Source: an uncultured Lachnospiraceae bacterium (lineage in GTDB: Bacteria; Bacillota; Clostridia; Lachnospirales; Lachnospiraceae). From it: 64,000 nucleotides of DNA. This document shows positions 17,041 through 58,441 of this stretch, piece after piece. Where the stretch lies: the NCBI GenBank assembly GCA_947564735.1, contig CANOEC010000006.1, forward strand, positions 62,001 to 126,000. Direction: 5' to 3'. Made by a program: the position numbers and the translations under genes. The notes beneath the pieces are model-generated. The model was given only the letters and a program-made list of their open reading frames with translations, searched no databases and had not been told where the DNA came from. Position 1 is the first letter of the stretch; every line of letters starts with the position of its first letter.

Positions 17041-18279
17041 TTATTTTTTCAAATATCCATTTGTATCGGTATAAATCTGGTCGCTGCATGCCTTTACGGT
17101 CGCCGACGGTTCATAACTATAATCGTTAAAGAGGAACTGGTGCAGCCACTTTACATTGTCTTCCAGACTAATCGGAATGACACAGGAACCTTTGGAACCA
17201 ATCGTTCCGGTCGCACGGTTCGACTCCTGAGGGAATCCTGCCGTATCCGAAATATAATAGGTGTTTACCTCGCCCAGCATTGAAATAATTTCATCCAAAT
17301 CAAGCGATGTATAAGTCTCGTCAAATACTGCGCTTGCCGTCTCCGTCAGCTTCGGAAGGGAAGCCTTCTTCGCCTGATCCGCCACAGCAGACAGTACTTC
17401 TCTCTGCCGCTCGGCACGCTTAAAGTCATCACCAGCCGTATAACGGATACGACAGTATCCCGTCGCCTGAAGCCCGTCCAATAACTGATAACCCGTAGAG
17501 GATACAGGCGTGTACGAACGCTTTAAATCTTCCGCAATACATAACTGATAGTTGTTCAAATGACTGATTTCCGAATCGTCCACATCAATATATACTCCAC
17601 CAAGCGCATCAATCGTATCTGTCAGCCCGGCAAAACCAACCGTGACAAAATCAGTAATATTCATGTCCAGATTCATGTTTAACATGCTGATTGCCATCTC
17701 CGGACCGCCCTTCGCATATGCCGCGTTACACTTATTATAAGAATCATTGCTCAGATTCAGATACGTGTCACGGTATACCGATACAAGCTTGCATTCGCCC
17801 GTGTCCTGATTGATGGACGCAATCATAATCGTATCGCTTCGTGTATTCTTGGTCAGTGCACCGGAAGTAGAATCCACACCGAACAGCGCGATATTGCGGT
17901 AGCCCCGCATCGTGGTCTCCTGTGCCTCTTTGACCGTATCGTTGATAATAATATCGCTCTCGTCCAAATCAACCTTACCGCTCTTGGTAGCAGTCAGGAC
18001 ACCGTATAACACAAATACTGCAATGAGTAGAATGATAATCTCTACAATAAAAATAATAATTCTTCTACGTTGTTTCTTCGCCTGCTGCTTCTTACTTGAA
18101 GATTTCTTACCGCTTCCCTTACTCCCGGAAGACTTCTTGGAACCGCCTTTACTTCCCGAAGACTTCTTACTGCCTCCCTTACTCCCGGAAGGCTTCTTGC
18201 CGCTTCCTTTGCTCCCGGAAGAAGATTTCTTTTTCGGACGTTCATCCTCGTATTCGTATTCATCGTCATATTTCGCCAT
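17041..18279 (-). CDS. LytR-CpsA-Psr (LCP) family glycopolymer-peptidoglycan ligase
   Basis: 412 residues from the Met preceded by AAAGGGG. A cytoplasmic tail (16-72) is built of near-repeats of KKSSGSKGG and is strongly basic; a short acidic YDDEYEYEDE stretch precedes it. One membrane helix (~72-95), then the LCP domain: NIALFGVD, NTRSDT with catalytic Arg, SVYRDT, and RIRYTAGDDFKRAERQR with the C-terminal Arg set. LCP enzymes transfer undecaprenyl-linked polymers to peptidoglycan, or in some cases to protein. The position beside the initiating sugar transferase suggests it attaches the polysaccharide made by this locus. It has its own promoter and terminator. Confidence 0.92.
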   Translation of the reverse strand: MAKYDDEYEYEDERPKKKSSSGSKGSGKKPSGSKGGSKKSSGSKGGSKKSSGSKGSGKKSSSKKQQAKKQRRRIIIFIVEIIILLIAVFVLYGVLTATKSGKVDLDESDIIINDTVKEAQETTMRGYRNIALFGVDSTSGALTKNTRSDTIMIASINQDTGECKLVSVYRDTYLNLSNDSYNKCNAAYAKGGPEMAISMLNMNLDMNITDFVTVGFAGLTDTIDALGGVYIDVDDSEISHLNNYQLCIAEDLKRSYTPVSSTGYQLLDGLQATGYCRIRYTAGDDFKRAERQREVLSAVADQAKKASLPKLTETASAVFDETYTSLDLDEIISMLGEVNTYYISDTAGFPQESNRATGTIGSKGSCVIPISLEDNVKWLHQFLFNDYSYEPSATVKACSDQIYTDTNGYLKK

Positions 18280-18381
18280 ATATCCGTACCCCTTTGATTT
18301 CTGTATACTCGTAAACAATTCCGACTCTCATTCTCTCACACTACGCCGCAAAAATCAAGCTATAGCATAAATTACTATTTG

Positions 18382-18497: not shown

Positions 18498-19907
18498 CTA
18501 ATAGGCATTTTTATTAATGAATCCCTTAAAAATCGTCAGAAACATAATCTTGATATCAAATGACATCGTCCAGTTCTCAATATAGAAAATATCATATTCA
18601 ATCCGCCGTTTGATGGACGTATCACCCCGGTAGCCGTTAATCTGCGCCCAGCCTGTAAGTCCCGGTCTGACCTGATGCTTCACCATGTAACGGGGGATTT
18701 CTTCTTTAAATTTTTCCACAAACTGCGGTCGTTCCGGTCTTGGTCCCACCACGCTCATATCCCCTTTAAGAATATTGAATAGCTGGGGAAGTTCATCAAT
18801 GCTTGTCCTGCGCAGCACCTTTCCTACCTTGGTCACACGGGGGTCATCCTTGGTCGTCCAGCCCTTCTCCTCCGTGGAAGGCTTCTGCACTTCCATTGTG
18901 CGGAACTTATACATTTTAAAAGGTTTATTGTGGAGTCCGATACGTTCCTGCTTGAAGATAACCGGTCCCTTTGACGTACACCCGACGGCAATTGCCGCAG
19001 CCAGCATGACCGGCGACGCCACCACAAGCCCCACAATCGAGGCAACCACATCCACCACTCTTTTGGCAATCCAATTCAACGTATTGGTCAGCGGAACATA
19101 ACGAATATTGATTACCGGCAGCCCCATCAGATCCTCCGTGTAAGGACGGCTCGGAAACATACTATTATAATCGGGGATAAATTTCGTGTGAACACCAGAT
19201 TTTTCGCAGATATCCACAATATGCTCCAAATTGTCATAATCCTTCAAAGAAAGCGTAATCGCAATCTCGTCCAGTTTATTTTCCGGCAGAATATAGAGCA
19301 GATTCTCGATGGAACCGACCACCTTGACGCCTTTGTACAATGTACCTCTTGGCACGCTGTCATCAAGAATCCCCCGCACCACATATCCCCATTGGGGATT
19401 GGCATTGATACGGTTGATATATTCCTCCGCAGCACGGGAATATCCCACCAGCAAAATGTATTTCAGATTGTAACCTTTTTCACGGAAATATTGCAGAAGC
19501 ATTCTAATCAGAGAACGTCCGAGCGTCGTAAGCAGAATATTGATAATAAAGAAATATCCCATCATGGCACGCGAAAAGTGAATCTGCTCGACCAGATACC
19601 AGCCCGCCATCAGCAGAATCAACCCCACCACGTTCGCCTGAAAAATGTTCAAAATCTCATATTTATGCACTGTCGCGCGCTTTGGCGTATACAGGTTGAA
19701 GCTGTAGTAGAGAATCAGATAGCCCGGCACAATCGCATAAAGCATTCCGAAATATGTGCGCATAGAAAGAACACCGGTCGTTGGTCCGATGTCTGAAAAG
19801 GGGCTGGCAAACTTCAGATACCATGCCAGCATATAGGAAGCCGCTATGACGACGGCATCCAGCACTACGTGCAGTCTGTTAAAATATTTCTGATTATCCT
19901 TAATCAT
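18498..19907 (-). CDS. Undecaprenyl-phosphate glycosylphosphotransferase (WcaJ/WbaP type), chain initiator
   Basis: 469 residues. Four or five N-terminal membrane helices, a central Rossmann-like CoA-binding-type domain (~130-260) and a C-terminal bacterial sugar transferase domain after another hydrophobic segment (~285). Family motifs visible: FKQERIGLHNKPFKMYKFRT, the RRTSIDELPQLFNIL segment, VGPRPERP, and RPGLTGWAQINGYRGD. These enzymes move a sugar-1-phosphate from a nucleotide sugar to undecaprenyl phosphate and so start a surface polysaccharide. The sugar cannot be told from sequence. Two hairpin elements separate it from the next gene upstream. Confidence 0.94.
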   Translation of the reverse strand: MIKDNQKYFNRLHVVLDAVVIAASYMLAWYLKFASPFSDIGPTTGVLSMRTYFGMLYAIVPGYLILYYSFNLYTPKRATVHKYEILNIFQANVVGLILLMAGWYLVEQIHFSRAMMGYFFIINILLTTLGRSLIRMLLQYFREKGYNLKYILLVGYSRAAEEYINRINANPQWGYVVRGILDDSVPRGTLYKGVKVVGSIENLLYILPENKLDEIAITLSLKDYDNLEHIVDICEKSGVHTKFIPDYNSMFPSRPYTEDLMGLPVINIRYVPLTNTLNWIAKRVVDVVASIVGLVVASPVMLAAAIAVGCTSKGPVIFKQERIGLHNKPFKMYKFRTMEVQKPSTEEKGWTTKDDPRVTKVGKVLRRTSIDELPQLFNILKGDMSVVGPRPERPQFVEKFKEEIPRYMVKHQVRPGLTGWAQINGYRGDTSIKRRIEYDIFYIENWTMSFDIKIMFLTIFKGFINKNAY

Positions 19908-26791: not shown

Positions 26792-29182
26792 CTACACCTT
26801 ACATGTCTTATCACTCCATGCAAGCAGCTTTTCACCCTGCCCGCCCGTATATAACATCCCGACACGATACGTCCCCGACGGTAAATCTGTGCACAGCACA
26901 CGGAGTACAAACCCTGCCAAGCCAATATTTACTTCCGACGGCAAAATCGCTTCCACATCCTTACGATACCAGTCGCTCGGCGTCGCAATATAATTCTCCG
27001 TACTGTTCTCTTCGTGCTCCCCATCCATCCGCGTAATCAGCACTTTTTTATCGTAACACGCGTTATCCTCTCCGGGCACATAACACCACCCCATAATCCA
27101 GAGAATATCCGGCTCCTCCGCATGTATCTTGTGCTGTATTTCCGCCCTGTCAACGGTCAGCCGAAGCCTGTTCATGCAAAAGCCTTTCTTCATTCTGCCC
27201 TCATACGGCTCCGCCTTCGTTGTGAGCAAATGCTCCTCATAAGGGAACTTATAATTGATGCCATAGTCGGAAGCATTATCAATCAAAGCATTGTGGTAAA
27301 AATCATCCCGTCCGCGCATCTGCGGATGCTTGGCATACAGATTTTCTTTCTCCGTAAGCAGCCGTTCCCACTTGCCGCTGTCTTCCTCGTCAAGTCCGCG
27401 GCTTAACGACTCATGATGGTACAGCACCGCATCGTTGCGCTGTACATTATAATACCCTGCTTCAATCAGTTTGAAGCAAAAGTCCACGTCATTATAAGCG
27501 ACAGCCATTGTCTCATCCATGCCGCCCACTTCTTCATATTTTTTGCGGCTTACCATAAGGCATGCCGCCGTTACGCCAATCATATTATAGACAACTCTGT
27601 TGCGCCCGTAATAGTAATCTTTGTTGTCCGTAAATGTAATCAGCTTATGGGATGGTCCTATCTCCATGTTGGTAATACCCACATGCTGAATATTCTGCGT
27701 ACCCGCATACCACAGCTTAGCCCCCACCGCTCCCACATGCGGCTGCAAAGCCTGTCCTGCCATTCTTCTAAGCCAGCTGTGCTCTATCATTTCAATATCA
27801 TCATTCAGAAGAAGAATCAAATCGCCGCTTGCCTTCTCCACTCCCATGTTACACATCTTGGAAAAATTAAAGTCCATCTTCTCATACAGATACAAAAATC
27901 CATATTCCTTCTGCATCGCTTCCAGCTTGGCACGGTTCTCCTCATTACTGCCGTTATCTACAACAATCCATTCATAATAGCTATAACTCGTCTTGGCGCG
28001 GAACGAATCAAGGCATCTCTTAAGCACTTCCGGATGGTCTTTGGATGGAATGATAACGGAGACGACATACTGCGGTGCAATCTGTCTGTCCGTCCCCTGC
28101 GCGCGGACACATCTCTCTCTGCCGGAAATGGACGTATCATACACGATATGGTACAAATCCGGTTCGCCGCCTCTCATAAATATCCCTTTCATTCCCCGGC
28201 GTTCAAGCGCCGCCTCACGTATCCGTATATATTCCGCCCCTGCGCCCATCAAATAACAGCCGCTCTCCAGTTCTTCAATAAGCGCCGCCTCTACAATGCG
28301 GAACTTTTCTTCCTGTTCCGGACATGCATCCATCTGGCGTTGAAGCTCCTGCGGTGGTTGATATCTGTGATGATAGAGAATGGCATCGATATGACATACG
28401 CATTCCTGCATGGATAGATCTTCCAGTCTGCTGCGCCTGATTGCCGCTTCCTCCAGACAGAGGCACAAATCATAGAAACGCATTGGCTGACTTCCGCGTT
28501 TCATCCTGCCCTGCATATCCCCTGCTGAAAGCACTTCGGAAAGTATGTCCGTTCTGACAGCCAATAAATAACCCCAGTAATTAAATGCAAGCAACGTATC
28601 CGGTGAATAACATGGCTTCAGCCACGGTTGCATACGGTGCGCGCTGTCCCCCCAGCAATAGTCTTCATCAGCATAGGCAAGGATACACTTTCTATTTTTA
28701 TTAAAACATGCTTTAACTTTTGAGAATGTATATTCATCAAGGAACCCTTCTCCGTATGTCAAAAGGACAATCTCCGTGTCCGGTACACTGATTGCCTGCC
28801 AGCCGTTTACCGCAATTACCGCATTCTGCCCACCCTCACAGTCACATGCGTTATTTTCAGCATTTATCCATTCTCCATAAGGATTCTGCTGGCGGTGCAT
28901 CTCCTTTTCATAACGCAGAAGACAGGCGTCCGTCCATGAACTCCTGTCCGTATCTTTCTTATGCCGCGTATCATCCTTTACCGCATGATATAGCTTGCGG
29001 AAGGGCGCCGTCATTTTCCAGAACGGACTTGCATAAATGCGGTTCAGATTATCATTCAAATCTGTCTGCCGCCTCTGTGCGTCTGCAATCTTACCCGCCA
29101 GCACAATATTCTTTTGACGCTCTTTCTCATATGCGGCCGCATAATATGCCGCCCACCCATATCGCTCCGTACGTCCGCTCAT
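26792..29182 (-). CDS. Large family 2 glycosyltransferase with N-terminal coiled coil and C-terminal beta domain
   Basis: 796 residues. An N-terminal coiled coil (~10-65) with AYEKERQKNIVLAGKIADAQ and LNRIYASPFWKMTAPFRK matches that of the downstream enzyme nearly position by position. Residues ~110-330 resemble a GT2 domain that has lost its standard start (no VVIP strand; AYADEDYCWGDS remains). Residues ~375-640 are a complete GT2 domain: VSVIIPSKDH, VVDNGSNEE, LLLNDDIEMIE, YNDVDFCFKL. The last ~150 residues look like a beta-sandwich (ILWIMGWCYVPGED, GLAGFVLRVL) of unknown role. The start lies just after the stop of the methyltransferase-kinase gene, consistent with one operon. Confidence 0.88.
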   Translation of the reverse strand: MSGRTERYGWAAYYAAAYEKERQKNIVLAGKIADAQRRQTDLNDNLNRIYASPFWKMTAPFRKLYHAVKDDTRHKKDTDRSSWTDACLLRYEKEMHRQQNPYGEWINAENNACDCEGGQNAVIAVNGWQAISVPDTEIVLLTYGEGFLDEYTFSKVKACFNKNRKCILAYADEDYCWGDSAHRMQPWLKPCYSPDTLLAFNYWGYLLAVRTDILSEVLSAGDMQGRMKRGSQPMRFYDLCLCLEEAAIRRSRLEDLSMQECVCHIDAILYHHRYQPPQELQRQMDACPEQEEKFRIVEAALIEELESGCYLMGAGAEYIRIREAALERRGMKGIFMRGGEPDLYHIVYDTSISGRERCVRAQGTDRQIAPQYVVSVIIPSKDHPEVLKRCLDSFRAKTSYSYYEWIVVDNGSNEENRAKLEAMQKEYGFLYLYEKMDFNFSKMCNMGVEKASGDLILLLNDDIEMIEHSWLRRMAGQALQPHVGAVGAKLWYAGTQNIQHVGITNMEIGPSHKLITFTDNKDYYYGRNRVVYNMIGVTAACLMVSRKKYEEVGGMDETMAVAYNDVDFCFKLIEAGYYNVQRNDAVLYHHESLSRGLDEEDSGKWERLLTEKENLYAKHPQMRGRDDFYHNALIDNASDYGINYKFPYEEHLLTTKAEPYEGRMKKGFCMNRLRLTVDRAEIQHKIHAEEPDILWIMGWCYVPGEDNACYDKKVLITRMDGEHEENSTENYIATPSDWYRKDVEAILPSEVNIGLAGFVLRVLCTDLPSGTYRVGMLYTGGQGEKLLAWSDKTCKV

Positions 29183-29185
29183 CTG

Positions 29186-31300
29186 TCAAAACAGTCCCCT
29201 TTTCTGCATATGTTTTACCGTCTCCTCCGGCAGCTTCGTCACCTGCATCGCCATTTGCAGCAGATTTTTCTCCTCACCGGGAATCCCTGAAAGAGACACT
29301 GTTATATTCGGGTCGCTGGTAGGACACACATAAGTCTTTTCTCCTATCTTGAATCCGTTCACCTGTATCTGTCTGCCCCTCCACGGTATCGGCACTCCGT
29401 TCCATTTCACTTCTTCCAGATAAATCAGGCAGAAATCGTTGCACGGATCAATACGCAGCGCACTTCTGCCACCCGGAACCACAACCTCCAGTCCGGTCAT
29501 CCCGTTCTCCCGCACACTGATATGCTCTCCATTGTTTTCATCAATAAAAAACGACTGTTCTTCATTAAATCCTCTGCCCGTGTCTTCATAAATCTGTATG
29601 CGATCCCTGCCCGCCGCCTGCGCCTGACTCTCGCAGAAAGCTTCGACCGTATAAACCGGATTATCAATTGCGTCCCGAATCTGCGCCATGGACATCTGTT
29701 TTCCAGTCACATATCTCTGAAAGTCCATCTCCTGCTTACGATACTGTTCCGCCTCAAACTGATCCAGCCCAAGCTTTTCAATTATAGAATCAAGATTTAA
29801 TTTATTCCTATTTTCATTCTCCAACAAGTAGCAGTAAACGGCACGAAACGCTACTTGCTTCGTCTCAATCACTTGCTCGAAGCTCCATTCACAGTCAATA
29901 ACATTCCAATCGTTATCTATATTTTCAGGTACAATCAGATTGGAAAATATAAGATCGTAATCAGCAATTCTTTTTTCTTCGCCATAGGATATCCGTTCAT
30001 AATACTTGTCAAACAATCGTCCAAAGCCTTCCAGATCTTCCCGTTCCAGACAATCATCCAGAAGCTCCTCAAGCGTTCTTCCCTCGACATATTCCAGCGA
30101 CAGATAGGGCGCTTCTGTCTCAATTCCCACCAGACTCTCCGTGCTGCTGTTTGCCCTCTCCAGCTTGCAGCGATTGACTGTGAGTGCACTGCCCTTGTAG
30201 CGCTTCTCCAATGCGCCATAAAGTTGTGCCGTATGCTCAATATGCTCCCATGCGTCTTTTAATAACGGATGTTTCTCTATTATTTTTCCGGACTCGCTTT
30301 CTTTCAGAACCGTCTTGATGCAAAATTCCGGTTTTCTGTCATTGGAATATTTGACATATGTCTCTTCCAGTTCCGGTCCGAGCAGCATCATATACGAATT
30401 AGAGAACAGCTCAAACGCTCCCTCCTGTATGATTGTGTCAAATACCCTTTTTTCATCAAACAGCTGCAATCTGTCTCTGTCAAAATTACGCAGGTTATTC
30501 GACAATTCTCCCATTTTTGGAAGCCTTTTTTGCGAATAAAGACATGTCATAAACTTATAATCCGGATAGGGATAATACATCTGCACCTGTCCGTAACCGC
30601 ATCGCCCGGCAATCCCGCGCAAGCCTTCTGCGGTAAACGTCCTCACCACCCCGCCGTCCGGATAGTTCTCTATGCCGCTAAAATAGGTGCCCAGATGGTC
30701 CTCCCGGCATCCCGCCCAATATTTTAGTCCAAATTTATTTTCGATTGCAATCGCAATATGTCCCTCCGGCTTCAAATGCTTTCTGATAATATTCAGAAAA
30801 TCTTCATAGGGAGTCTCCGAGCGGATATATGCCTGCGCATACTCAAACACCCCGATCAGACAGATATAATCGTAATCACACGGCAGGTCCGGCTCCACAT
30901 CCTGAAAATTGCCCACATGAATTGTCACATTGTCCGCATCCATATGACGATATGCGTTGATTCTGCTCCGTTTCCTCGACAAATCGATACAGGTCACTTC
31001 ACCTGCCTTCCCCGCAAGCGCTCCGGTAATTGCACCGCATCCGGAACCGACCTCCAGTACTTTCATTTCCTTGGTAATCGGAAGCCATTCCACGATATTT
31101 TCTCTCTGTGGGGATAAATGGTACAAAATCTCCCAGCTCTTACGCTCCTCGATGATACGTCCGTATTCCACCGACGAGAAATTACGTGTAATCTCTAAAA
31201 GCTCGTCTTCCACATCACCATCGCAATAATAGTCCTCTCCCGGATAATGCGTAAAATCCAGTTTGATTTTTCCGATTTCTTCTATCTTATTCTCCGGCAT
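29186..31300 (-). CDS. Methyltransferase-kinase fusion protein, WbdD-like candidate chain terminator
   Basis: 704 residues, no membrane segment. Residues ~45-260 are a class I SAM methyltransferase (motif I VLEVGSGCGA at 81-90, D106 after strand 2). Residues ~320-500 look like a protein-kinase/APH fold: CIKT with K329, hinge LEYVEGRTLEELL (402-414), catalytic-loop pattern D449-x4-N454 in DLIFSN, and metal-binding D469 in VIDCEW. Residues ~570-690 look like a beta-rich C-terminal domain. This order matches WbdD of E. coli O8/O9a, which caps the O antigen by phosphorylation and methylation. Directly upstream of two large GT2 genes and directly downstream of Wzt and Wzm. AGGAAACGG precedes the ATG. 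The substrate is inferred from context. Confidence 0.8.
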   Translation of the reverse strand: MPENKIEEIGKIKLDFTHYPGEDYYCDGDVEDELLEITRNFSSVEYGRIIEERKSWEILYHLSPQRENIVEWLPITKEMKVLEVGSGCGAITGALAGKAGEVTCIDLSRKRSRINAYRHMDADNVTIHVGNFQDVEPDLPCDYDYICLIGVFEYAQAYIRSETPYEDFLNIIRKHLKPEGHIAIAIENKFGLKYWAGCREDHLGTYFSGIENYPDGGVVRTFTAEGLRGIAGRCGYGQVQMYYPYPDYKFMTCLYSQKRLPKMGELSNNLRNFDRDRLQLFDEKRVFDTIIQEGAFELFSNSYMMLLGPELEETYVKYSNDRKPEFCIKTVLKESESGKIIEKHPLLKDAWEHIEHTAQLYGALEKRYKGSALTVNRCKLERANSSTESLVGIETEAPYLSLEYVEGRTLEELLDDCLEREDLEGFGRLFDKYYERISYGEEKRIADYDLIFSNLIVPENIDNDWNVIDCEWSFEQVIETKQVAFRAVYCYLLENENRNKLNLDSIIEKLGLDQFEAEQYRKQEMDFQRYVTGKQMSMAQIRDAIDNPVYTVEAFCESQAQAAGRDRIQIYEDTGRGFNEEQSFFIDENNGEHISVRENGMTGLEVVVPGGRSALRIDPCNDFCLIYLEEVKWNGVPIPWRGRQIQVNGFKIGEKTYVCPTSDPNITVSLSGIPGEEKNLLQMAMQVTKLPEETVKHMQKRGLF

Positions 31301-31324
31301 CCGTTTCCTACCTTCCGCTCTGCG

Positions 31325-32650
31325 CTAATTCACTTTTTTGACTTCTACCGTGGAATCCATATCGTAAAATCCAACCGTATCTTTGTCCGATATCACAGTC
31401 AGGTTCAGTACGTCGTACAACCTGTGATACACCGTAAAGTCATCGTTTTCATATCCGGTAACACCCAGAGACAGCAAATAATCTCCGCCCTGCAGATTCA
31501 TTTTCTGTGTGAATGCCACCTCACATTTTTCTCCCGCACTGACCGGTTCGAGGAACGCCTTCTCAAACATGGTATTGGTGCCGGTAATTTCCGTCCCACG
31601 CACATTTTTGATGGTAAATGCAAAAATCGGCGCCTGTATGTCTTCCGCCATGCCCACCTTCATATGGATTGTGAACCCATTGCCTTTGAGGATTGCCGAA
31701 GTCCGAACACCTTTCTCATCTGTGATATAGTATTCCTCAATCACAGCTTTCTTAGACCCGTACTCCAGAAGTTCCGGGTTCTCCGCCACACCGCCCGGCA
31801 CGCTTCCTTTATCTGTCCCTGCTTCTTTCTTTGTGCCCGCCATGCTGCCTGCAGCCACCCTGCGCAGCTCCTCATCATCTAACAGTCTCGTATTTTCCGA
31901 TTCCGGCACCGCATACTGTCCTACCAGAACCTGTTTGTAGATATCAATCATCTCTTTGGGCTTTCCCTCACCAAGCTTGGTGCCCTGATTGAGCAGCACA
32001 ACTCTGTCGCAATATTTGCTGATACTGCTTAGGTCATGGCTGACAAATACAATCGTCTTGCCCATCTCTTTAAATTCTTCAAACTTATGATAACACTTTG
32101 CCTGAAAAAAAACATCTCCCACGGACAGCGCCTCGTCCACAATCAGAATCTCCGGCTCTATATTGATTGCCACTGCAAAAGCGAGACGCACAAACATACC
32201 GCTGGAATATGTTTTCACCGGCTGGTACACATACTCCCCGATATCCGCAAACTCCAGAATCGCGTCCATCTTTTCACGAATCTCTTTCTCAGAAAAACCG
32301 ATCATTGTTCCGTTTAAGTAGATGTTCTCGATGCCGTTATACTCCATATTAAATCCTGCACCCAGCTCAAGCAACGCAGAAATCCGACCATTGACCGTCA
32401 CATCGCCGCTCGTCGGACTCAGAACACCCGTAATAATCTTTAAGATGGTAGATTTTCCGGAGCCGTTCGTTCCGATAATCCCGACACATTCTCCCTGTCT
32501 GATTGTCAAATCAACCCCTTTGAGGGCATGATGCTCCTTATGGTGTTTTCCCCGTCCCAGCCCAAGCGCTTCCTTAATCCGGTCTGACGGCTTATCATAC
32601 AATTTATATACTTTTTCCACATTTGTGACTTGAATCGCAATATCGTCCAT
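31325..32650 (-). CDS. wzt: Polysaccharide ABC exporter ATPase with C-terminal carbohydrate-binding domain (Wzt)
   Basis: 441 residues from the Met preceded by AGGAAAGAG. The ATPase domain (~1-245) has Walker A GTNGSGKST, the TagH/Wzt-type signature YSSGMFVRLAFAVAI and Walker B ILIVDEALSVGD. A linker rich in Ala, Gly and Lys (~260-290) leads to a Wzt-C type beta-sandwich (~295-435) containing FAFTIKNVRGTEITGTNT. In the O8/O9a system that domain binds the capped end of the glycan and licenses export, which fits the adjacent WbdD-like protein. It forms a transporter with the permease encoded just upstream. Confidence 0.95.
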   Translation of the reverse strand: MDDIAIQVTNVEKVYKLYDKPSDRIKEALGLGRGKHHKEHHALKGVDLTIRQGECVGIIGTNGSGKSTILKIITGVLSPTSGDVTVNGRISALLELGAGFNMEYNGIENIYLNGTMIGFSEKEIREKMDAILEFADIGEYVYQPVKTYSSGMFVRLAFAVAINIEPEILIVDEALSVGDVFFQAKCYHKFEEFKEMGKTIVFVSHDLSSISKYCDRVVLLNQGTKLGEGKPKEMIDIYKQVLVGQYAVPESENTRLLDDEELRRVAAGSMAGTKKEAGTDKGSVPGGVAENPELLEYGSKKAVIEEYYITDEKGVRTSAILKGNGFTIHMKVGMAEDIQAPIFAFTIKNVRGTEITGTNTMFEKAFLEPVSAGEKCEVAFTQKMNLQGGDYLLSLGVTGYENDDFTVYHRLYDVLNLTVISDKDTVGFYDMDSTVEVKKVN

Positions 32651-32685
32651 ACTCTTTCCTATCTGTCTGTATCCTGCCACACAGC

Positions 32686-33723
32686 TTATAACACATCCGC
32701 GAAGTGAACCCGCATTTTACGGAAAATCAACGTACCAATACAGAACATACTAATTGTAAATATCCAGAAATAGGTAGATGAGTAAAAATGCTCCCAGAAC
32801 CATACTTCCTCATAAATTGCGCTCCGGTATCCATTAACCACATACACAAGCGGGTTTAGTTTAAATAACGTCTTCATGTTGTCAGTCTTAAGCATTGTGA
32901 TACTCCACAGAATAGGCGTAGCCCACATACCGATTTGCAGCGCAATATTAATAATCTGCTGAAGGTCTCTGATAAATACAACAAGCGCACAGGTCATATA
33001 ACTCATGCCCAGCACGAGCATAAACATACAAAAACTGTAATAAATAATCTGAAGCGTATAGATGCTAGGATAATAACCATATCCGACAGATACAAGCAGC
33101 AGCACGACCACAAAGAATACATGAATAAATGTAGCTGCAATCACCTTGATAATCGGCAGAATACTAATGTTAAACACAACCTTTTTGACCAGATAATTAT
33201 ATTCAATTAACGCCATTGTGCCCTGCGTAATTGCCTCTGAGAAATAGAACCACGGCACGAGTCCTGCCGTCAGATAAAGCACATAGGGAACCTCAAGCCC
33301 ACTTGCAACCATCTGACTTCTCGTGTCAAACACCTTATCGAAAACAATCCAATACATGACTACCGTCACCACCGGCTGCGCCATCGCCCAGACGATGCCG
33401 AGGTAAGAACCGGCGTACCGCTTCTTAAAATCATTCTTTGCCAGCTTCCAAATCAGCTTTCTGCTCTGAAAAAGCTCTACCGGAATCGTCATGATTCTCT
33501 CATAGTATATCGCGTAAATCGCACAGGTAAATGTAATCAGGACACACCCGCTGACCTTTTTCATCCGCTCCGTCACCTGATCGGCGAGCGGATTATGATG
33601 ATTGATGAGCACCAACGCCAGAATCAGACCAAGCCCCCAGAATATCGCGACTCCCGCGGGCTTTCCTAAATGCTTGCTCTTTTTACTATTAGCGCTTTTC
33701 TGTTCTGTCTTTTCCACACTCAT
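32686..33723 (-). CDS. wzm: Polysaccharide ABC exporter permease (Wzm) with N-terminal extension
   Basis: 345 residues; Wzm/TagG proteins are usually about 260. The extra ~80 N-terminal residues contain two hydrophobic segments (about 23-41 and 57-75). The ABC-2 core follows, with the amphipathic start FQSRKLIWKLAKNDFKKRYA and LGIVWAMAQPVV, six helices and the NPLVYVVNGYRSAI motif. It exports the lipid-linked polymer with Wzt. GGAG precedes the ATG, which overlaps the stop of rfbC by four bases (ATGA), indicating translational coupling. Confidence 0.93.
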   Translation of the reverse strand: MSVEKTEQKSANSKKSKHLGKPAGVAIFWGLGLILALVLINHHNPLADQVTERMKKVSGCVLITFTCAIYAIYYERIMTIPVELFQSRKLIWKLAKNDFKKRYAGSYLGIVWAMAQPVVTVVMYWIVFDKVFDTRSQMVASGLEVPYVLYLTAGLVPWFYFSEAITQGTMALIEYNYLVKKVVFNISILPIIKVIAATFIHVFFVVVLLLVSVGYGYYPSIYTLQIIYYSFCMFMLVLGMSYMTCALVVFIRDLQQIINIALQIGMWATPILWSITMLKTDNMKTLFKLNPLVYVVNGYRSAIYEEVWFWEHFYSSTYFWIFTISMFCIGTLIFRKMRVHFADVL

Positions 33724-34289
33724 ACGCCGCTCCGGTACTTCTTCGTATATGCTGCAAATCCTTCTCTGTGAGCATCTTTCTCAGACAAAACCGGCTGTGA
33801 TCCCTCCGGGATATGCCAGTCAATCTGAAGTTCGGGATCGTCCCATGCGATACCACCCTCGTCGTCAGGATGATAGAAATCCGAGCATTTATAGGCAAAC
33901 TCGGCATAATCGGACAGGACATAAAAACCGTGGGCAAAATTCTTGGGAATAAAAAACTGCTTCTTGTTCTTCTCCGAAAGCAATACGCCGAACCACTTGC
34001 CGTATGTGGCAGAGCCCTCACGTAAATCCACCGCCACATCATACACTTCTCCCCGCAAAACGCGCACCAGCTTGTCCTGCGGATACTGAATCTGAAAATG
34101 CAGACCGCGCAAAACACCCTTGGTTGACGCAGACTGGTTGTCCTGCACAAAAACCTGTTCAATCCCCGCCTCTTTGAAATCGTTATAATTATATGTTTCT
34201 ACAAAATATCCCCGCGCATCTTCAAAGACCGTGGGCGTAATCACTTTCAGCCCCTCTATCCCGCATGTTTCCACTGTTATCTTACCCAT
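33720..34289 (-). CDS. rfbC: dTDP-4-dehydrorhamnose 3,5-epimerase
   Basis: 189 residues from the Met preceded by AAAGGAACCGGG. RmlC cupin family: ARGYFVETYN, FVQDNQS, GVLRGLHFQ with the catalytic His, V-D-L-R and PKNFAHGFYVLSD. It epimerises C3 and C5 of dTDP-4-keto-6-deoxyglucose, step three of dTDP-L-rhamnose synthesis. It is split from rfbA and rfbB by a muramidase gene. Confidence 0.96.
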   Translation of the reverse strand: MGKITVETCGIEGLKVITPTVFEDARGYFVETYNYNDFKEAGIEQVFVQDNQSASTKGVLRGLHFQIQYPQDKLVRVLRGEVYDVAVDLREGSATYGKWFGVLLSEKNKKQFFIPKNFAHGFYVLSDYAEFAYKCSDFYHPDDEGGIAWDDPELQIDWHIPEGSQPVLSEKDAHREGFAAYTKKYRSGV

Positions 34290-34360
34290 TATCCCGGTTC
34301 CTTTCTTTATCCTCTGATTTCTTTCCACAGATGCTCAAAATCGCAGAAGTTCTTCTCACG

Positions 34361-35719
34361 CTATTCTTCCTCGTCCCCGCCAGTTGGCACGTTCCCACTG
34401 TCACCATCAATAATTCCCGAATAGCCCGCCGCTCCTTTGGCATGGTTAATGGAAGTATCAATATTCATATAACACAGATTCAAATCCACCCTCGTCTCAA
34501 TACCGCTCACCGTGCCTTTGGAGGTGTACTGCCACATATGATAATACTCATCATAAACAGGTACGTCCGCATATTCTGCAAGCCATGTCCTGTATTCTGA
34601 CAGTTCTGTCATATTCACTTCATCCTTCAGCCAGTTTCTCGAACCATATATACCGGTTTCATAACCCGCCGATGCAATCGTCTCCAAAAAAGCTTTATGG
34701 ATTTTCGTCCGTTCATCGACGCCCAGACCGTCCGCACGCCCGCGTCCGCCGGCGCTTTCACTGTCTAAAAAGACCGGATAATCCACATCGTAGTCTTCAA
34801 TCAGACTGATGACCATGCTGGCTTCTTCCACTGCCTCCACTTCATTGGTCGCCTGTGTAAAGAAATACACGCCTACCGGAATACCGGCTTCAATAGCGCC
34901 TCTGATATTTTTCTCGTACATCGGGTCTAACACGAGCACCCCGCTGGCTGCACCTCTGTATCCGCAGCGGATGATGGCAAACTCAATCCCCTCTGCTTTC
35001 ACTTGTTTCCAGTCAATCGTCTGATTCCATTTGGAAACGTCGATTCCCAGCTTGACGTTGCCGCTGGCAAACTGAAGCTGTGTATTCTCACTGCCATCCG
35101 CCGCCTCTTCGGCGCCGTTCACTGCCCTGTCTTCCTTATCGACATCAATATCATCCTCTGTAAGAATCAAGTACTCAATATCATCAAGCACCCGATATTC
35201 AATCTCCTGTCTCACCTGTATGGAAGTGATGGTATTAGGCACATGAAAGCCCTCTTCCTCCTTAAGAGAAACACTGTACTCTCCGGAACGCAGCCCGTCA
35301 ATGTAAATAATGCCGTCCTTGTCTGTATCGGTATACTCCCCGACGCCCTGCACCGTAATCGTAAAAGGCGTTCCCGTCACAAGATTCCCGATACTGTCCA
35401 CTACCATTACACGCAGGTCTTTCGCAACGGAACTCATCATCAGAAACACATTTCTGCCGGAATACGCCTCAATACTTTTAAATCTGACTTCCGGGTCAAA
35501 AAAGGTTTCATCTTGCAGAAAGGCAGACAGATTATCCCCTCTCTGTCCACCATTTCCATCCGTCTCTTCTATGAGTGCCGTCTCCTCCGGCTGCCCGTCC
35601 GCAGTCAGACCAAGCTTTTGTTTGACCTGCTCCAAATTAGCTGCTGCAAGTGCGCCGACTATCACGGCAAACACAACAATCATGGCAAACAGCGTCTTCT
35701 TTATTTTCCTAGAGTCCAT
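34361..35719 (-). CDS. Membrane-anchored GH25 muramidase with SpaA-like domain
   Basis: 452 residues from the Met preceded by GAGG. One N-terminal membrane helix (~8-27), an acidic linker, a SpaA/prealbumin-like beta domain (~90-175: [13 protein letters not shown]-like strand, [18 protein letters not shown]) and a C-terminal GH25 domain (~215-415) with [16 protein letters not shown], and the catalytic acidic pair in VFLDSES. GH25 enzymes cut the MurNAc-GlcNAc bond in peptidoglycan. The active site is outside, tethered to the membrane. It overlaps the end of rfbA by 11 bases, so it is embedded in the dTDP-sugar operon. The acidic C-terminal tail is unexplained. Confidence 0.93.
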
Positions 35720-36578
35720 TGGCAACCTCAATCATATACTGACCGTATGCTGTCTTCATCAGCGGTTCCGCCAGTTCCAGCAACTGTTCTCTCGTAATGA
35801 ATCCTCTCTTAAAGGCAATCTCTTCAATGCAGGAAATATACAGTCCCTGCCGCTTCTGAAAAGCAGCCACAAAATCAGCCGCATCAAGCAGCGAATCGTG
35901 ATTGCCTGTATCCAGCCATGCAAAACCGCGTCCCAGCGTCTCCACATGCAAATCTCCTCTGCGCAGGTATTCGTTATTGATACTTGTAATCTCTATCTCA
36001 CCTCTCGCGGAAGGCTTCACGTTCGCCGCAATCTCCACCACGTCATTGTCATAAAAATACAATCCCGGCACCGCATAATTGCTCTTCGGATGCTCCGGTT
36101 TTTCTTCTATGGACAATGCTTTGCCGCTCTCGTCAAACTCTACCACGCCGTACTCTCTCGGATCTCTGACGTAATAGCCGAAAATCGTGGCGCCTTTCTT
36201 TCTTTGCGCAACTTCTCTGAGCACGCGGGAAAAACTCTGTCCGTAAAAAATATTATCGCCCAAAATAAGCGCCACACTGTCGCTTCCGATAAAATCCGCG
36301 CCGATAATAAAGGCATCCGCCAGCCCACGCGGGTATTCCTGCACCGCATACTCCATATGCAGCCCAAGCTGTTCCCCCGTGCCAAATAATTCCTCAAACA
36401 CCGAAATATCCCGCGGTGTAGAAATAATCAATATCTCTCGGATACCGGCAAGCATCAATATTGAAAGCGGATAATAAATCATCGGCTTGTCATACACCGG
36501 CATAATCTGCTTTGAAACCGCTTTCGTCAATGGATACAGCCGGGTGCCGGATCCTCCTGCCAAAATAATTCCCTTCAT
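35709..36578 (-). CDS. rfbA: Glucose-1-phosphate thymidylyltransferase
   Basis: 289 residues from the Met at [16 protein letters not shown]. Nucleotidyltransferase motif [11 protein letters not shown], sugar-binding [20 protein letters not shown] with the metal Asp, EEKPEHPKS and [16 protein letters not shown]. It joins dTTP and glucose-1-phosphate to give dTDP-glucose, the first step of dTDP-rhamnose synthesis. The upstream frame start at 36602 has no better ribosome binding site. Confidence 0.97.
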
Positions 36579-36634
36579 CCAACCAGCCTTACCTTTCCTC
36601 ATCCTTCGGTCTTTTTACCGCACAAATGTGTAAA

Positions 36635-37714
36635 TTACTGCTTGTACATCTCCTCATAGTACTTCTGATAATCGCCGCTCGTAACGTTCTTCATCCAGTC
36701 TTCATGCTCAAAAAACCACTGGATTGTCCGGCGGATGCCTTCCTTAAACATTGTCTCAGGCTCCCAGCCGATTTCCGCCTTAATCTTATCCGGCGCTATC
36801 GCATACCTTCTGTCATGCCCCTTACGGTCTTCCACATAAGTAATCAAATCCTCGCTGACAAGCTTCCTTCGCGGGTCGTCATCAGAAAGCATCTCCTGCA
36901 GCGTCTCTATAATAATCTTGATAATCTCGATATTCTGTTTTTCATTGTGTCCACCCACATTGTAGGTTTCAAACAATTTTCCCTGTTCCTGCACCATATC
37001 AATCGCCTTCGCATGGTCTTCCACATACAGCCAGTCCCGCACATTCTTACCGTCCCCATAAACCGGCAGCTTCTTCCCCTGCAGGGCATTGTTGATAATA
37101 AGCGGAATCAGTTTCTCCGGAAACTGGTAAGGTCCGTAATTGTTGGAACAGTTCGTGATGTTCGCCGGAAAGTGATACGTGTCCATATATGACCTGACAA
37201 GCATGTCAGAACTTGCCTTGCTGGCAGAATAAGGACTGTGAGGCGCATACGGCGTCGTCTCATAGAAATAACCACCGTCCTCCTCAAGCGAACCGTAAAC
37301 TTCGTCCGTAGAAACATGCAGGAATTTTTTATCCGCCTTAAAGCTGCCGTCGGGAAGCTCCCACGCCGCTTTCGCACAGTTTAACATGACTGCCGTGCCA
37401 AGCACATTCGTCTGTACAAAGACCTCCGGATTACGGATACTGCGATCCACATGGCTCTCCGCCGCAAAATGAACGACCCTGTCGATATCATTTTCTTCAA
37501 AAATACGTGCAACCGCTTCCTTATCACAGATATCCGCCTTGACAAACGTATAATTTTCCCTGTCCTCAATATCTCTCAGATTCTCCAGATTCCCCGCGTA
37601 GGTCAGCGCATCCACATTAATGATACGGATATCGTTATCATACTTGCGGAACATATAATGTATATAATTGGAGCCAATAAAACCTGCTCCTCCTGTTACC
37701 AGATAAGTTCTCAT
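36635..37714 (-). CDS. rfbB: dTDP-glucose 4,6-dehydratase
   Basis: 359 residues, extended short-chain dehydrogenase. NAD-binding GGAGFIGSNY, strand ending in DALTYAGNLENL, HFAAESHVDRSI, STDEVYGSLEEDG with catalytic T-D-E, Y-x3-K in YSASKASSD, and NNYGPYQFPEKLIPL. It converts dTDP-glucose to dTDP-4-keto-6-deoxyglucose. First gene of the rfbB-rfbA-GH25-rfbC-wzm-wzt run; behind its own promoter. Confidence 0.97.
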   Translation of the reverse strand: MRTYLVTGGAGFIGSNYIHYMFRKYDNDIRIINVDALTYAGNLENLRDIEDRENYTFVKADICDKEAVARIFEENDIDRVVHFAAESHVDRSIRNPEVFVQTNVLGTAVMLNCAKAAWELPDGSFKADKKFLHVSTDEVYGSLEEDGGYFYETTPYAPHSPYSASKASSDMLVRSYMDTYHFPANITNCSNNYGPYQFPEKLIPLIINNALQGKKLPVYGDGKNVRDWLYVEDHAKAIDMVQEQGKLFETYNVGGHNEKQNIEIIKIIIETLQEMLSDDDPRRKLVSEDLITYVEDRKGHDRRYAIAPDKIKAEIGWEPETMFKEGIRRTIQWFFEHEDWMKNVTSGDYQKYYEEMYKQ

Positions 37715-37835: not shown

Positions 37836-40800
37836 CTAATAACTCATATAGCTGACATTCATATCCACACTGCCGCTTATGCCGCTCACTTTTCCCTTGG
37901 AAGAATACTGCCACATATCGTACCTTGTCGCCGAATAGGTCGGAGCGCTCGCATACTGCGCCAGCCAGATCTTATACCCGGTCAGACTCGCCGTATTGAT
38001 TTTCTCGTTAAGCCATGTCTTGTTGGCATATATGCCTGCAGAATAACCGGAATTCTGTACGGTAGCGCAAAATGCCTTGCAAACCGCCGTTCTCGTATCC
38101 TTGCTGACGCCGTCTCCTCTTCCTCCGCTGGACTCAACGTCCAAGAAAATCGGATAGTTCAGCCCGTAACCGCTGCACAGATTCACCGCCATAGAGGCTT
38201 CCTCTACCGCTTCCACCTCATTGACCGCCTGACTGAAGAAATAGGCTCCCACCTTAAGTCCTGCCGCCTTGGCACCCTTGATGTTGCTTCTAAAAAGCGG
38301 ATCTTCAATCAGCGCACCCGTCGAGGATCCTCTGTATCCGCACCGGATAATGACATAGGATACACCCGAATTTTTGACCGCATTCCAGTCAATGCTGCCG
38401 TTCCACTTAGACACATCGATTCCCATCGTACCGGAACCAGCTGACAGCTTGCCGTCACTGCCAAAATTATACTTCGCACCTTGAATGACCTGTTCACCTG
38501 TCACATAATTGTTTGTTTTATCAAAAAAGTAGACATATCCGTCTATCGTCTGCCAGCCCGTATACAGATACTGGGCGTATACGTTCGATTTTTTATAAAA
38601 AACAGTCTGCGTCTTATAATCATCATAAGTCGCTTCCCTGAATGCACCCGTCGCATCTTTACAGTACAACTGATTACCGTCTTTATCCTTTAACTTGTTG
38701 CCCGTATCCTTCTTGACCGTTACTTTATAAGTGACAAATGTCTTAACATCCCCATCAAGATGCACAATAATTTCCGTTGCACCCTCTGCCACGCCGGTAA
38801 CGACTCCGTTTGCATCAACCTTTGCAATTTTATCATTCGCGCTCGCCCACACAACCTTAGAGCCCTTCGGGTTGGTCTGTGCGGTGAGCGTAATTGTCTT
38901 ACCAATCGCTACCTCTTTGGGTCCGCTGACAGTAATCTTATCATTTGATTCCTTAACGGTTACTTTACAGGTTGTATAAACATTGAGATTACCCTCAAGA
39001 TGTACGATAATTTCCGTTGTTCCCACTGCCACGCCGGTAACGACTCCGTTCGCATCAACCTTTGCCACCTTATCATTCGCGCTCGCCCATACCACTTTGC
39101 TGCCTTTTGGCTCCGTCTGTGCTGTCAGCGTGGTCGTCTTGCCAATTGCCACGTCTGTCGTGCCGCTGATGATGATCTTGGCGTCTGCCGGCTGAACCGT
39201 AACCGTACAGCTTGCAGAATATACTATGTTGTTCACCGATACTGCCGCTGTAATGACTGTCGTGCCCTGCTCTACTGCCGTTACTGTACCATTGCTCACT
39301 GTCGCAACATTGGTGTTATTGCTGACCCATGTGATTGACGGATTCGTGATGCCTGTAACGGTCGCCTTTAAGGCTGCCGTTGTTCCCTTCTTCACGGAAA
39401 TATTGCTCTGGTCGAGAGTAACCGTAACCGTCGGTGCTGTTTCTGTGACCGTCACGGTACAGGGTTTGGAGTCTGATTTTCCATCCTTTGTAGCCGTTAC
39501 TGTAATGGTTGCTGTACCCTTCGATACTGCCGTTACCAAACCATTCTCTACTGTTGCCACACTTGGGTTGTTACTGACCCATGTGATTTGGCTATCTGCC
39601 GGGGATGCAGTTGCCGTTAAGGTTGCAGACTTACTCTTTTCCAAGGAAAGGCTTGTCTGACTTAAGGAAACCGATACCTTCACTTCCGGCGCAGGCTTTG
39701 CCTCAACCGTCACGATACAGCTTGCAGAAACCCCGCCTACGGTTGCTGTGATGGTAGCCGTTCCTGCCTTTCCCGCTGTTACACTGACACTTGTGCCACT
39801 ACCTCCTACTGCCGCCACTGCACTGTCGCTGCTGTTCCATACCGGAGCCTCGTTTGTCCCCGTCACTTCGGCAGATAACGTCTTACTTTCTCCTTCTTTT
39901 AATGAAATACTGTTCGGATTTATACTAATACTGATTGTCGGCGCCGGCGTCTGCGTTGTGCTTCCGCTACTGGTACTATTATCTCCGCCCGGATTATCTC
40001 CTCCCGGATTGCCTTCATTTACATTATCATTACCCTGCTCATTTCCACCCGGTGCCGGTGTCCCACTGCCTTCTTCCGATTGTGAACCGCCTTCCACCAT
40101 CTTCCGATACACACTGCTCACCTTCAACGGATCGGGTATATTCGCCTTCGGGACCTCCTCGTAACCTTCCTTCGCATCACCAACCGGTTTCTTGGTGGAT
40201 TCCACCCATTCGACTGTATCCTTCAAGGTAGACTCTACCACGGTATCCTGCACCGCCGTATCCTCAGCAGCCACGTTGACCTCAGCCTCCGTTTTTACTT
40301 CGTCTGCCACATCGACTTTCTTATAGGTAATCGTATCCGTAACCGTTACACTGCTTGCGGACGACGGAAGCCTATAATCCTGATAAGCATCCCCCGCAAG
40401 CGGCTTAACCGTCACATTGTATGTTCCCGCCGGAACCTCTGTCTTGTAAATAATGCCATCCTTATCATCATCCTGATAACTTAGGGTCGTCTTTCCTCCT
40501 GTCACTTCCACTTCAAAAGGCACTCCGCCAATCAGCTTACCGGTCGCCTTATTGACGAACTTAATCTTCATATCCGACTGGATTGATGTAATATTGAGCC
40601 CCACTTCAATTGTTTTACTTTGTACTTCACCCGGTTCTGTCTGTTGCCCTACGTCCATTGGCTGGTCCATATCAATCATCCCGGAAAGCTTGGCAGACTC
40701 CGCCACCGCAAGCAACCCACTCTCACCAATCACAGAGATTCCTTCCATCTCTTCTCCGACGCTGGCAAACGTTTCTACCTGTTTCTCCACAGACTTCGCG

Positions 40801-44836: not shown

Positions 44837-44908
44837 AGTTACCTCTATGTCAGGGCAAAATTCTGCTCTGCAGTCAATAGCATTTGCGACATGCGCCCGC
44901 ACGCCATG

Positions 44909-56518: not shown

Positions 56519-56594
56519 GGTCTCTCCCGGATTTTTTTACCTAATATACCTACTATAGCATATCCACAAATGCTGTAATCCTATATCATTTCAG

Positions 56595-56642
56595 CAAGAA
56601 TTACGAAGTAATTCTTGTAACGCAAGCCGCTGGGCTTGCGTT
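56595..56642. repeat. Pair of perfect hairpins in the leader of the GT-C gene
   Basis: CAAGAATTAC/GTAATTCTTG (10-bp stem, loop GAA) followed directly by AACGCAAGCC/GGCTTGCGTT (10-bp stem, four-base loop). On the minus strand the first loop reads TTC, as in the multi-hairpin family, but the sequence is otherwise unrelated. The rest of 56519-56792 shows no gene. Confidence 0.7.
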
Positions 56643-56643
56643 T

Positions 56644-56652
56644 AGTATAGCA
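56644..56652 (-). promoter_or_regulatory. Candidate extended -10 of the GT-C operon
   Basis: Minus-strand TGCTATACT directly abuts the hairpin pair, so transcription would start inside the first stem. No clear -35 is present. Confidence 0.35.
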
Positions 56653-58425: not shown

Positions 58426-58441
58426 CGTGTTCACCCTCTTT

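What the first reader, a model, noticed from the sequence alone, without database searches (positions are those of the whole stretch)
29186..33723. WbdD-like cap-and-export module in a Gram-positive: methyltransferase-kinase fusion next to Wzt with a C-terminal binding domain and Wzm
Seen: one protein joins a SAM methyltransferase (VLEVGSGCGA) to a kinase-like fold with K329, hinge LEYVEGRT, D449-x4-N454 and D469, and its gene lies beside wzt (with Wzt-C domain) and wzm. Known: in E. coli O8/O9a, WbdD phosphorylates and methylates the glycan end, and Wzt-C recognises that end to license export. Inference: this locus uses the same length-control logic for a wall polysaccharide that LCP then attaches to peptidoglycan. 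The C terminus differs: a beta domain in place of the WbdD coiled coil.
Basis: partly seen in the sequence, partly recalled or inferred. Interest (0 to 1): 0.78.

Follow-up and report, generated by a model that had tools for sequence, protein, structure and literature searches.

The report
Sugar-chain capping enzyme beside its exporter
A gut bacterium, probably of the Lachnospiraceae, carries, right beside the pump that exports a surface sugar chain, a two-enzyme protein that looks able to put a phosphate and then a methyl group on the chain's end, much as some Gram-negative bacteria do to stop chain growth and permit export.

Summary
A 704-residue protein (29186-31300, minus strand) joins a SAM methyltransferase to a kinase-like domain and follows wzm and wzt; Wzt has a Wzt-C domain. 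The WbdD comparison is right about logic, wrong about family: like for like, the kinase profile matches a Pseudomonas homologue at probability 97, a Citrobacter one at 84 and E. coli WbdD at 1. The Pseudomonas protein, also next to wzm-wzt, carries at identical residue numbers all six SAM-site residues published for Klebsiella ORF6-O7, which adds methyl-phosphate to a rhamnose end in vitro. The invariant lysine is K343, not K329. In 150 same-family genomes the protein, whole or in parts, matches in 77; 76 of these also have Wzt-C, usually next door. Its domains are shuffled between genes, as among Klebsiella terminators. Best reading: a split-gene variant of the ORF6-O7 terminator, capping a probably rhamnose-containing polymer so that Wzt-C exports finished chains. 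Gram-positive caps on exported glycans are already described (Geobacillus, C. difficile), so this is a widespread new variant, not a new principle.

The parts
29186..31300 (-).
31325..32680 (-). Wzt, ABC ATPase with C-terminal Wzt-C domain (306-441); the ORF list starts at a GTG, many relatives align only from about residue 11
32686..33723 (-). Wzm, ABC-2 permease
26792..29182 (-). 796-aa glycosyltransferase with one GT2 module (375-552) and a candidate short N-terminal coiled coil; fused to the terminator in relative L073
24675..26753 (-). 692-aa glycosyltransferase with two GT2 modules and a candidate short coiled coil
33720..34328 (-). RmlC-like, dTDP-rhamnose synthesis; name recalled, no family scan was run on this ORF
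   Evidence: conserved position; name recalled
35709..36602 (-). RmlA, glucose-1-phosphate thymidylyltransferase
   Evidence: TIGR01207, over its cut-off
36635..37714 (-). RmlB-like, dTDP-glucose 4,6-dehydratase; name recalled, no family scan was run on this ORF
   Evidence: conserved position; name recalled
18498..19907 (-). WcaJ-type undecaprenyl-phosphate glucose phosphotransferase, likely initiator
   Evidence: TIGR03023, over its cut-off
17041..18318 (-). LCP (LytR-CpsA-Psr) glycopolymer transferase, candidate for attachment to peptidoglycan

Best explanation
The 704-residue protein is the chain terminator of an ABC-exported surface glycan, built from the same kinds of module as Klebsiella ORF6-O7 (methyltransferase, a kinase that standard annotation misses, a further domain that may be a CBM), with the glycosyltransferases in separate genes downstream. 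Proposed steps: (1) WcaJ starts the chain on undecaprenyl phosphate (inferred from family); (2) the GT2 proteins polymerise a chain that probably contains rhamnose (inferred from the rml genes); (3) the kinase domain phosphorylates the non-reducing end and the methyltransferase caps that phosphate, stopping growth (inferred by homology; shown in vitro for ORF6-O7 and WbdD); (4) Wzt-C binds the capped end and licenses export by Wzm-Wzt (inferred; genomic coupling shown); (5) LCP may attach the polymer to peptidoglycan (inferred, weakest step).
For: Homologues directly after an ABC permease and ATPase in Citrobacter (28% over 567 aa, methyltransferase and kinase) and Pseudomonas (BLASTP 31% over 346 aa, mainly methyltransferase). 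The Pseudomonas protein has Y28, Y66, G91, G93, E112 and Y158 at exactly the numbers published for ORF6-O7, and its D-x4-N aspartate is residue 443 against the published D441. Window equivalents: Y25, Y60, G85, G87 and Y154 in 48 of 48; position 106 is D in 33 of 48; D449 in 48 of 48. C-terminal domain against the Pseudomonas one: probability 70, P=4e-5; six controls under 1. Wzt-C in 76 of 77 genomes with the protein. Terminator-GT fusions.
Against: No activity, cap or polymer structure is known here. ORF6-O7 itself could not be reached, so the link goes through a proxy. No fold was predicted. The terminator shows no coiled coil of its own, the ruler of the known systems. The window Wzt-C does not side with the ORF6-O7-type loci: model scores are 44.5 (Pseudomonas), 43.8 (Citrobacter) and 40.8 bits (E. 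coli O9), and by BLASTP identity it is closest to E. coli O9, 32%. Exceptions to the coupling: of 77 genomes, G116 and G034 have the Wzt-C gene on another contig, G066 lies on a 5.9-kb contig, G076 has no Wzt-C match. In the phylum sample G467 and the in-family G395 showed no convincing Wzt in the fetched stretch. Genomes are related, so the Fisher value (1e-24) overstates independence.
Confidence: 0.65

Rival explanations
1. True WbdD: the protein is a member of the E. coli O9a WbdD family carried into a Gram-positive.
For: Same gene order wzm-wzt-terminator-polymerase, same D-x4-N and following D (D351/N356/D369 in WbdD), same two activities joined; Wzt-C closest by BLASTP identity to the E. 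coli O9 one.
Against: No BLASTP hit; hhalign probability 1.1 for the kinase profile and 10 for the outlying set over 19 columns, 30-70 for a methyltransferase stretch that any such enzyme could give; like-for-like controls 97.0 and 84.1 for Pseudomonas and Citrobacter; WbdD is not among the 20 PDB matches of the kinase profile at E up to 10; published domain limits differ (WbdD 1-210, 211-459) and the terminator shows no coiled coil. WbdD was used as a single sequence, not a profile.
Confidence: 0.05
2. Capping by methylation only: the kinase-like domain is a scaffold or pseudokinase and the methyltransferase puts an O-methyl on the terminal sugar, as WsaE does in Geobacillus.
For: WsaE precedent with wzm-wzt in a Gram-positive (passages). 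Some outlying relatives have altered kinase residues: Citrobacter has E for the second Asp, L134 has N at both Asp positions.
Against: K343, D449, N454 and D469 are invariant in 66 of 66 relatives, not expected of a dead kinase.
Confidence: 0.12
3. Phosphate cap without export licensing: the enzyme modifies chain ends or side groups, and Wzt-C reads something else.
For: G116 and G034 carry the enzyme away from the Wzt-C gene, G076 near a Wzm-Wzt without Wzt-C. The C. difficile SLCT-11 glycan ends in cyclophosphoryl-rhamnose.
Against: One Wzt-C class (76 places, E<1e-38) lies within 12 kb of the enzyme in 72, while 36 other Wzt-C places have it in 1; one of the 4 misses (G081) has a divergent copy next door.
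Confidence: 0.12
4. The polymer is an S-layer or other protein-linked glycan or a loose exopolysaccharide, not a wall polymer; the capping logic is otherwise the same. (Not exclusive of the best explanation, which leaves the destination open.)
For: Geobacillus and C. difficile capped glycans are on S-layer proteins.
Against: An LCP gene and two GH25 genes lie in the cluster. No search for an oligosaccharyltransferase of the WsaB kind was made.
Confidence: 0.25

Closest known systems
Klebsiella pneumoniae ORF6-O7 (PMC11231755; part 1 of 2 of sections 11 and 13 read, passages elsewhere)
   Same: Methyltransferase, then a kinase domain not annotated by standard tools, then a further domain; next to wzm-wzt; dTDP-rhamnose genes; equivalent SAM-site residues and catalytic Asp (through the Pseudomonas proxy); some relatives of the window protein are fused to GT2 modules as ORF6-O7 is.
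   Different: Here terminator and glycosyltransferases are separate genes; candidate coils sit on the glycosyltransferases and are short; the host is, by kinship, a monoderm. Activity is shown for ORF6-O7 only.
E. coli O9a WbdD (PMC3482155; Results section read, both parts)
   Same: Methyltransferase plus kinase, gene order, Wzt with C-terminal domain.
   Different: No detectable family-level sequence similarity; domain sizes differ; WbdD has a long coiled coil.
Lcin_0519 kinase-methyltransferase family (PMC9758233; section 9 read, passages elsewhere)
   Same: Kinase-methyltransferase, in part of its neighbourhoods beside Wzt, Wzm and GT, said there to be clearly different from WbdD.
   Different: No Lcin_0519 sequence was compared here; the paper's main text has 0 occurrences of Firmicutes, Bacillota or Clostridia.
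Geobacillus WsaE S-layer glycan system (PMC2943079; passages read)
   Same: Gram-positive, wzm-wzt, rml genes, N-terminal methyltransferase proposed to cap a rhamnan and permit export.
   Different: 2-O-methyl cap; no kinase mentioned in the passages seen; S-layer glycan.
C. difficile SLCT-11 S-layer glycan (PMC6254364; abstract, sections 5 and 14 read, passages elsewhere)
   Same: Clostridia, rhamnose-rich, ABC-exported, phosphate at the non-reducing end, proposed as a stop signal.
   Different: Cyclic phosphate; the main text has 0 occurrences of methyltransferase, kinase or Wzt; protein-linked.

Membership tests
[quoted passage not shown]
   hhalign probability 1.1 against 97.0 and 84.1 for the two homologues; WbdD absent from 20 PDB matches at E up to 10
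WbdD | Long coiled coil at the terminator's C terminus | tested here: not met
   Residues 540-704: best heptad score 0.20, reached by 177 of 300 shuffles; WbdD control 0.76, 1 of 300. The score is rough
WbdD | Neighbouring wzm and wzt with Wzt-C | tested here: met
WbdD | Adds methyl-phosphate to a chain end | not testable with these tools
   needs enzyme assay or NMR
ORF6-O7-type terminator | Methyltransferase with the published SAM-site residues | tested here: met
   Via the Pseudomonas proxy: 5 of 6 positions identical in 48 of 48, the sixth acidic in the window (D for E; D in 33 of 48)
ORF6-O7-type terminator | Kinase domain, unseen by standard annotation, with catalytic Asp | tested here: met
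   Via the proxy: probability 97.0, P=1.1e-10; D449 in 48 of 48 and 66 of 66
ORF6-O7-type terminator | Ig-like CBM after the kinase | tested here: inconclusive
   C-terminal domain matches the proxy's at probability 70; fold not predicted
ORF6-O7-type terminator | Coiled coil in the same polypeptide | tested here: not met
   Not seen in 540-704; candidate coils begin the next genes. Hence described as a variant, not filed as a strict member
ORF6-O7-type terminator | Direct similarity to the ORF6-O7 sequence | not tested
   I found no way to fetch that sequence
ORF6-O7-type terminator | Kinase and methyltransferase activity | not testable with these tools
   needs enzyme assay
Wzt-C export coupling | Wzt with a C-terminal carbohydrate-binding domain accompanying a terminator | tested here: met
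   76 of 77 genomes; 32% identity to E. coli O9 Wzt-C. Binding itself not testable

The most novel reading that the evidence does not exclude
About half of this gut family (matches in 77 of 150 genomes sampled; Lachnospiraceae by the titles of most of the nearest public contigs) cap a peptidoglycan-linked, rhamnose-containing wall polymer with methyl-phosphate, and a dedicated class of Wzt-C reads that cap. Because the terminator shows no long coiled coil, chain length would be measured differently from the coiled-coil ruler of Gram-negatives, perhaps by the C-terminal domain holding the growing chain or by contacts with the short coils of the glycosyltransferases.
Probability: 0.3. Interest if true: 0.75.

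Novelty: new variant of a known kind. Interest (0 to 1): 0.55.

Why it matters
It gives a named, testable end-group for the surface polymers of a large group of gut bacteria, places a kinase that standard annotation misses, and shows that terminator, kinase and glycosyltransferase modules are split and fused around the same kind of exporter. If the cap is real, it tests whether chain-end-licensed export works the same way for a monoderm wall polymer as for LPS, and how length is set without a long coiled-coil ruler.

Tried and rejected
WbdD membership: fetched wbdD from E. coli HS (12 of 12 published residue numbers agree) and found no family-level similarity, also in a like-for-like test; rejected. 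K329 as the catalytic lysine: rejected in favour of K343; that K343 is the ATP-site lysine is inferred from invariance, not from a structure.

Other results of little or no use: DNA search of E. coli genomes with the Citrobacter gene, no match. C-terminal domain against Wzt-C, no similarity. Pfam on 66 kinase domains together (E up to 1): 4 hit Pkinase and 1 APH, but 5 hit an unrelated family (RBD_SIN1, best 0.0067), so such counts are noisy; 40 of the 66 were scanned one at a time at E up to 0.1 or 0.01 and one, L057, hit Pkinase, so the other three were not identified. PDB matches of the kinase profile: 17 of 20 are kinases or a phosphotransferase, but the best is a DPS-like protein and two are designed proteins. 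Coiled-coil score: rough, since a methyltransferase stretch used as non-coil control reached 0.48 (27 of 300 shuffles) and the Pseudomonas region 0.58 (48 of 300).

Rows dropped: L039 was left out of alignment A1 because of many ambiguous bases (47 of 48 fetched loci plus the window used), though one search counts it as having Wzt-C, there fused across ambiguous bases. Of 116 kinase segments, 70 were kept as non-redundant, 69 had no ambiguous residue, and 66 entered A2 (left out: L109, one of two in L110, L127). In one search five short loci that duplicate longer ones were dropped, leaving 8. Literature: seven searches of the held PMC library listed no report of a methyltransferase-kinase with Wzm/Wzt in Lachnospiraceae; two searches showed 15 of 435 and 12 of 27 papers, the two papers were not opened, and subscription papers are mostly missing, so this is weak evidence of absence. 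Papers seen only as passages: PMC12413058, PMC11127046.
Full report
WHAT IS THERE. Pfam finds methyltransferase domains in the 704-aa protein, ABC_tran and Wzt_C (E=1.5e-41) in Wzt, ABC2_membrane in Wzm, one GT2 stretch in the 796-aa and two in the 692-aa protein. In the same cluster are two GH25 proteins, RmlA, a WcaJ-type initiator and an LCP transferase. RmlB and RmlC are names recalled from the families. No RmlD was recognised in the window; a gene 44% identical to the Citrobacter RmlD lies on another contig.

THE KINASE-LIKE DOMAIN. Pfam names nothing convincing for residues 320-500. I built an alignment of 48 proteins (A1) and one of 66 diverse kinase regions (A2; 21-71% identical to the window, found with a model of A1 and so selected for similarity). 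Invariant in 66 of 66 are R322, T330, K343, D449, N454, D469, E471 and W472. In the joint Pfam scan 4 of 66 members hit Pkinase, best E=4.5e-6, and 1 APH, though an unrelated family was hit by 5; the best is L057, profile positions 20-146, 26.7 bits against a cut-off of 31.7. PDB matches are weak: with L057, 34 of 35 at E up to 5 are kinases, best E=0.07, and the alignment puts our D, N and D on HRD-D, N and DFG-D of GCN2; with the A2 profile 17 of 20 are kinases or a phosphotransferase but the best is a DPS-like protein at 0.04. No structure could be predicted.

NOT WbdD BY FAMILY. E. coli HS carries wzm, wzt, a methyltransferase gene and wbdA in the same order. That methyltransferase has the residues published for WbdD at 12 of 12 numbers checked. 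Against it the window protein gives no BLASTP hit; A1 gives probability 30 over a generic methyltransferase stretch, the methyltransferase parts alone 70, the kinase profile A2 1.1, the outlying kinase set 10 over 19 columns. The same A2 profile against single sequences gives 97.0 (P=1.1e-10) for the Pseudomonas kinase and 84.1 (P=7.5e-6) for the Citrobacter one. The model of close relatives alone is weaker: 90.3 and 20.8.

THE NEARER RELATIVES. tblastn over 72,556 plasmid records found two: Citrobacter braakii (rml genes, IS, ABC permease, ABC ATPase, 649-aa methyltransferase, GTs) and Pseudomonas asturiensis (ABC permease, ABC ATPase, a 1457-aa protein); my models place Wzm, Wzt and Wzt-C on these and two GT2 modules at the Pseudomonas protein's end. 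BLASTP: 28% over 567 aa and 31% over 346 aa. PMC11231755 describes Klebsiella ORF6-O7: methyltransferase, an unannotated kinase domain (D441), an Ig-like CBM, a coiled coil and two GT2 modules; in vitro it adds phosphate and, incompletely, methyl at O-3 of a terminal rhamnose, and D441A abolishes it. The Pseudomonas protein has Y28, Y66, G91, G93, E112 and Y158 at exactly the published numbers, while the Citrobacter protein, off by one, has none of the six there; the Pseudomonas D-x4-N Asp is 443. The C-terminal domain matches the Pseudomonas one at probability 70, P=4e-5 (six controls under 1) and shows no similarity to Wzt-C.

COUPLING TO WZT-C. In 150 genomes of the window's family (its own included), 77 have the protein or parts of it at E<=1e-10, 93 have Wzt_C at E<=1e-5, 76 have both. 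The kinase was not checked in each of the 77. Wzt_C lies upstream on the same strand within 500 bases in 60 of 77 and on the same contig in 73 of 77. A strong Wzt_C class (E<1e-38, 76 places) has the enzyme within 12 kb in 72; 36 weaker Wzt_C places have it in 1. Of the four strong-class misses, G081 proved to have a divergent fused copy adjacent. Exceptions: G116 and G034 (Wzt_C on other contigs), G066 (5.9-kb contig) and G076, where the enzyme sits near Wzm and a Wzt without Wzt-C. Among the 48 public loci, close relatives by construction, Wzt-C is directly upstream in 47 (in L052 it is 601 bases away; in L039 it runs on across ambiguous bases), a GT follows or is fused in 48, Wzm is present in 46 of 46 with room for it. 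In 398 genomes of the phylum 13 matched at E<=1e-10. Of the 9 outside the family, 6 have Wzm and Wzt in the fetched stretch, with Wzt-C detected in 4 (one of these, G310, has a methyltransferase only); G348 is ambiguous, G461 ends too soon, G467 has none convincing. In-family G395 has none in 15 kb. The window's own Wzt-C does not side with the ORF6-O7-type loci: 44.5, 43.8 and 40.8 bits for Pseudomonas, Citrobacter and E. coli O9, and 32% BLASTP identity to the last.

MODULE SHUFFLING. By my models 47 of the 48 public loci have methyltransferase+kinase+C-terminal domain in one gene, and one (L073) has the glycosyltransferase fused on as well, 1479 aa. Among 33 further family loci, chosen because they looked split, partial or non-adjacent, the methyltransferase is a separate gene in 14, kinase and GT share a gene in 10, and no kinase was found in 2 (some loci end at contig ends, and counts depend on model sensitivity). 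Such rearrangements recall the diversity described for Klebsiella terminators.

COILED COILS. With a rough heptad score the terminator's C terminus shows no pattern (177 of 300 shuffles reach it; WbdD control 1 of 300, Citrobacter 1, Pseudomonas 48, a non-coil control 27). The 796- and 692-aa glycosyltransferases begin with short candidate coils (13 and 5 of 300) ending in an S-x-x-W-[RK] motif also found near WbdD's C terminus at 592, and in 44 of 180 GT ORFs examined with a looser pattern. A long ruler of the WbdD kind is therefore not evident.

MECHANISM. Shown: the gene anatomy, the homology, the coupling. Inferred: kinase and methyltransferase activity, methyl-phosphate as the cap, export licensing by Wzt-C, rhamnose in the polymer, linkage by LCP.

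NOVELTY. Gram-positive capped, ABC-exported glycans are in print: Geobacillus 2-O-methyl rhamnan (PMC2943079, passages) and the C. difficile glycan ending in cyclophosphoryl-rhamnose, whose authors speculated on an O9a-like role (PMC6254364, sections 5 and 14). Methyltransferase-kinases beside Wzt/Wzm are in print for Proteobacteria (PMC9758233, section 9; PMC11231755, which also names cyanobacteria and an archaeon). Seven searches of the held library listed no report for Lachnospiraceae. Hence a new variant of a known kind, of moderate interest.

Noticed in passing
window 54320-59512 (-): GT2 protein (58442-59512), small protein without family match (57841-58473), flippase-like protein (56793-57851, TIGR00374 over cut-off) and a weakly matched putative glycosyltransferase (54320-56518, NF047440 27 bits, cut-off 200): resembles, by recall, a multi-component extracytoplasmic glycosylation system that could add side chains.
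   Followed up: no
window 43781-46405 (-): A 498-aa protein with partial DltB similarity (TIGR04091, 165 bits against a cut-off of 375; MBOAT-type by recall) next to a 373-aa protein without family match: possible polymer acylation pair.
   Followed up: no
window 37836-41636 (-): 1266-aa GH25 protein with bacterial Ig-like repeats and a long acidic DRYEDE-type repeat before a hydrophobic stretch.
   Followed up: no
L142:3327-6680 (-): Next to a strong-class Wzt-C, a 1118-aa fusion whose methyltransferase part scores low (29 bits) while the kinase part is clearer (61 bits): possibly a kinase-only terminator.
   Followed up: partly
L134:6737-8383 (-): Relative with Asn in place of both kinase Asp residues and no convincing Wzt neighbour: candidate pseudokinase released from the export role.
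   Followed up: no
MT839147, MT836085 (L143), MT836982: Three records labelled Bacteriophage sp. from human faeces encode this bacterial-type protein (35-53% identity); MT836085 is marked UNVERIFIED and unannotated. Possibly bacterial scaffolds labelled as phage.
   Followed up: partly
L114 (G076): Methyltransferase-kinase followed by a GT, then Wzm and a Wzt of 252 aa without the C-terminal domain; this genome has no Wzt_C match.
   Followed up: partly
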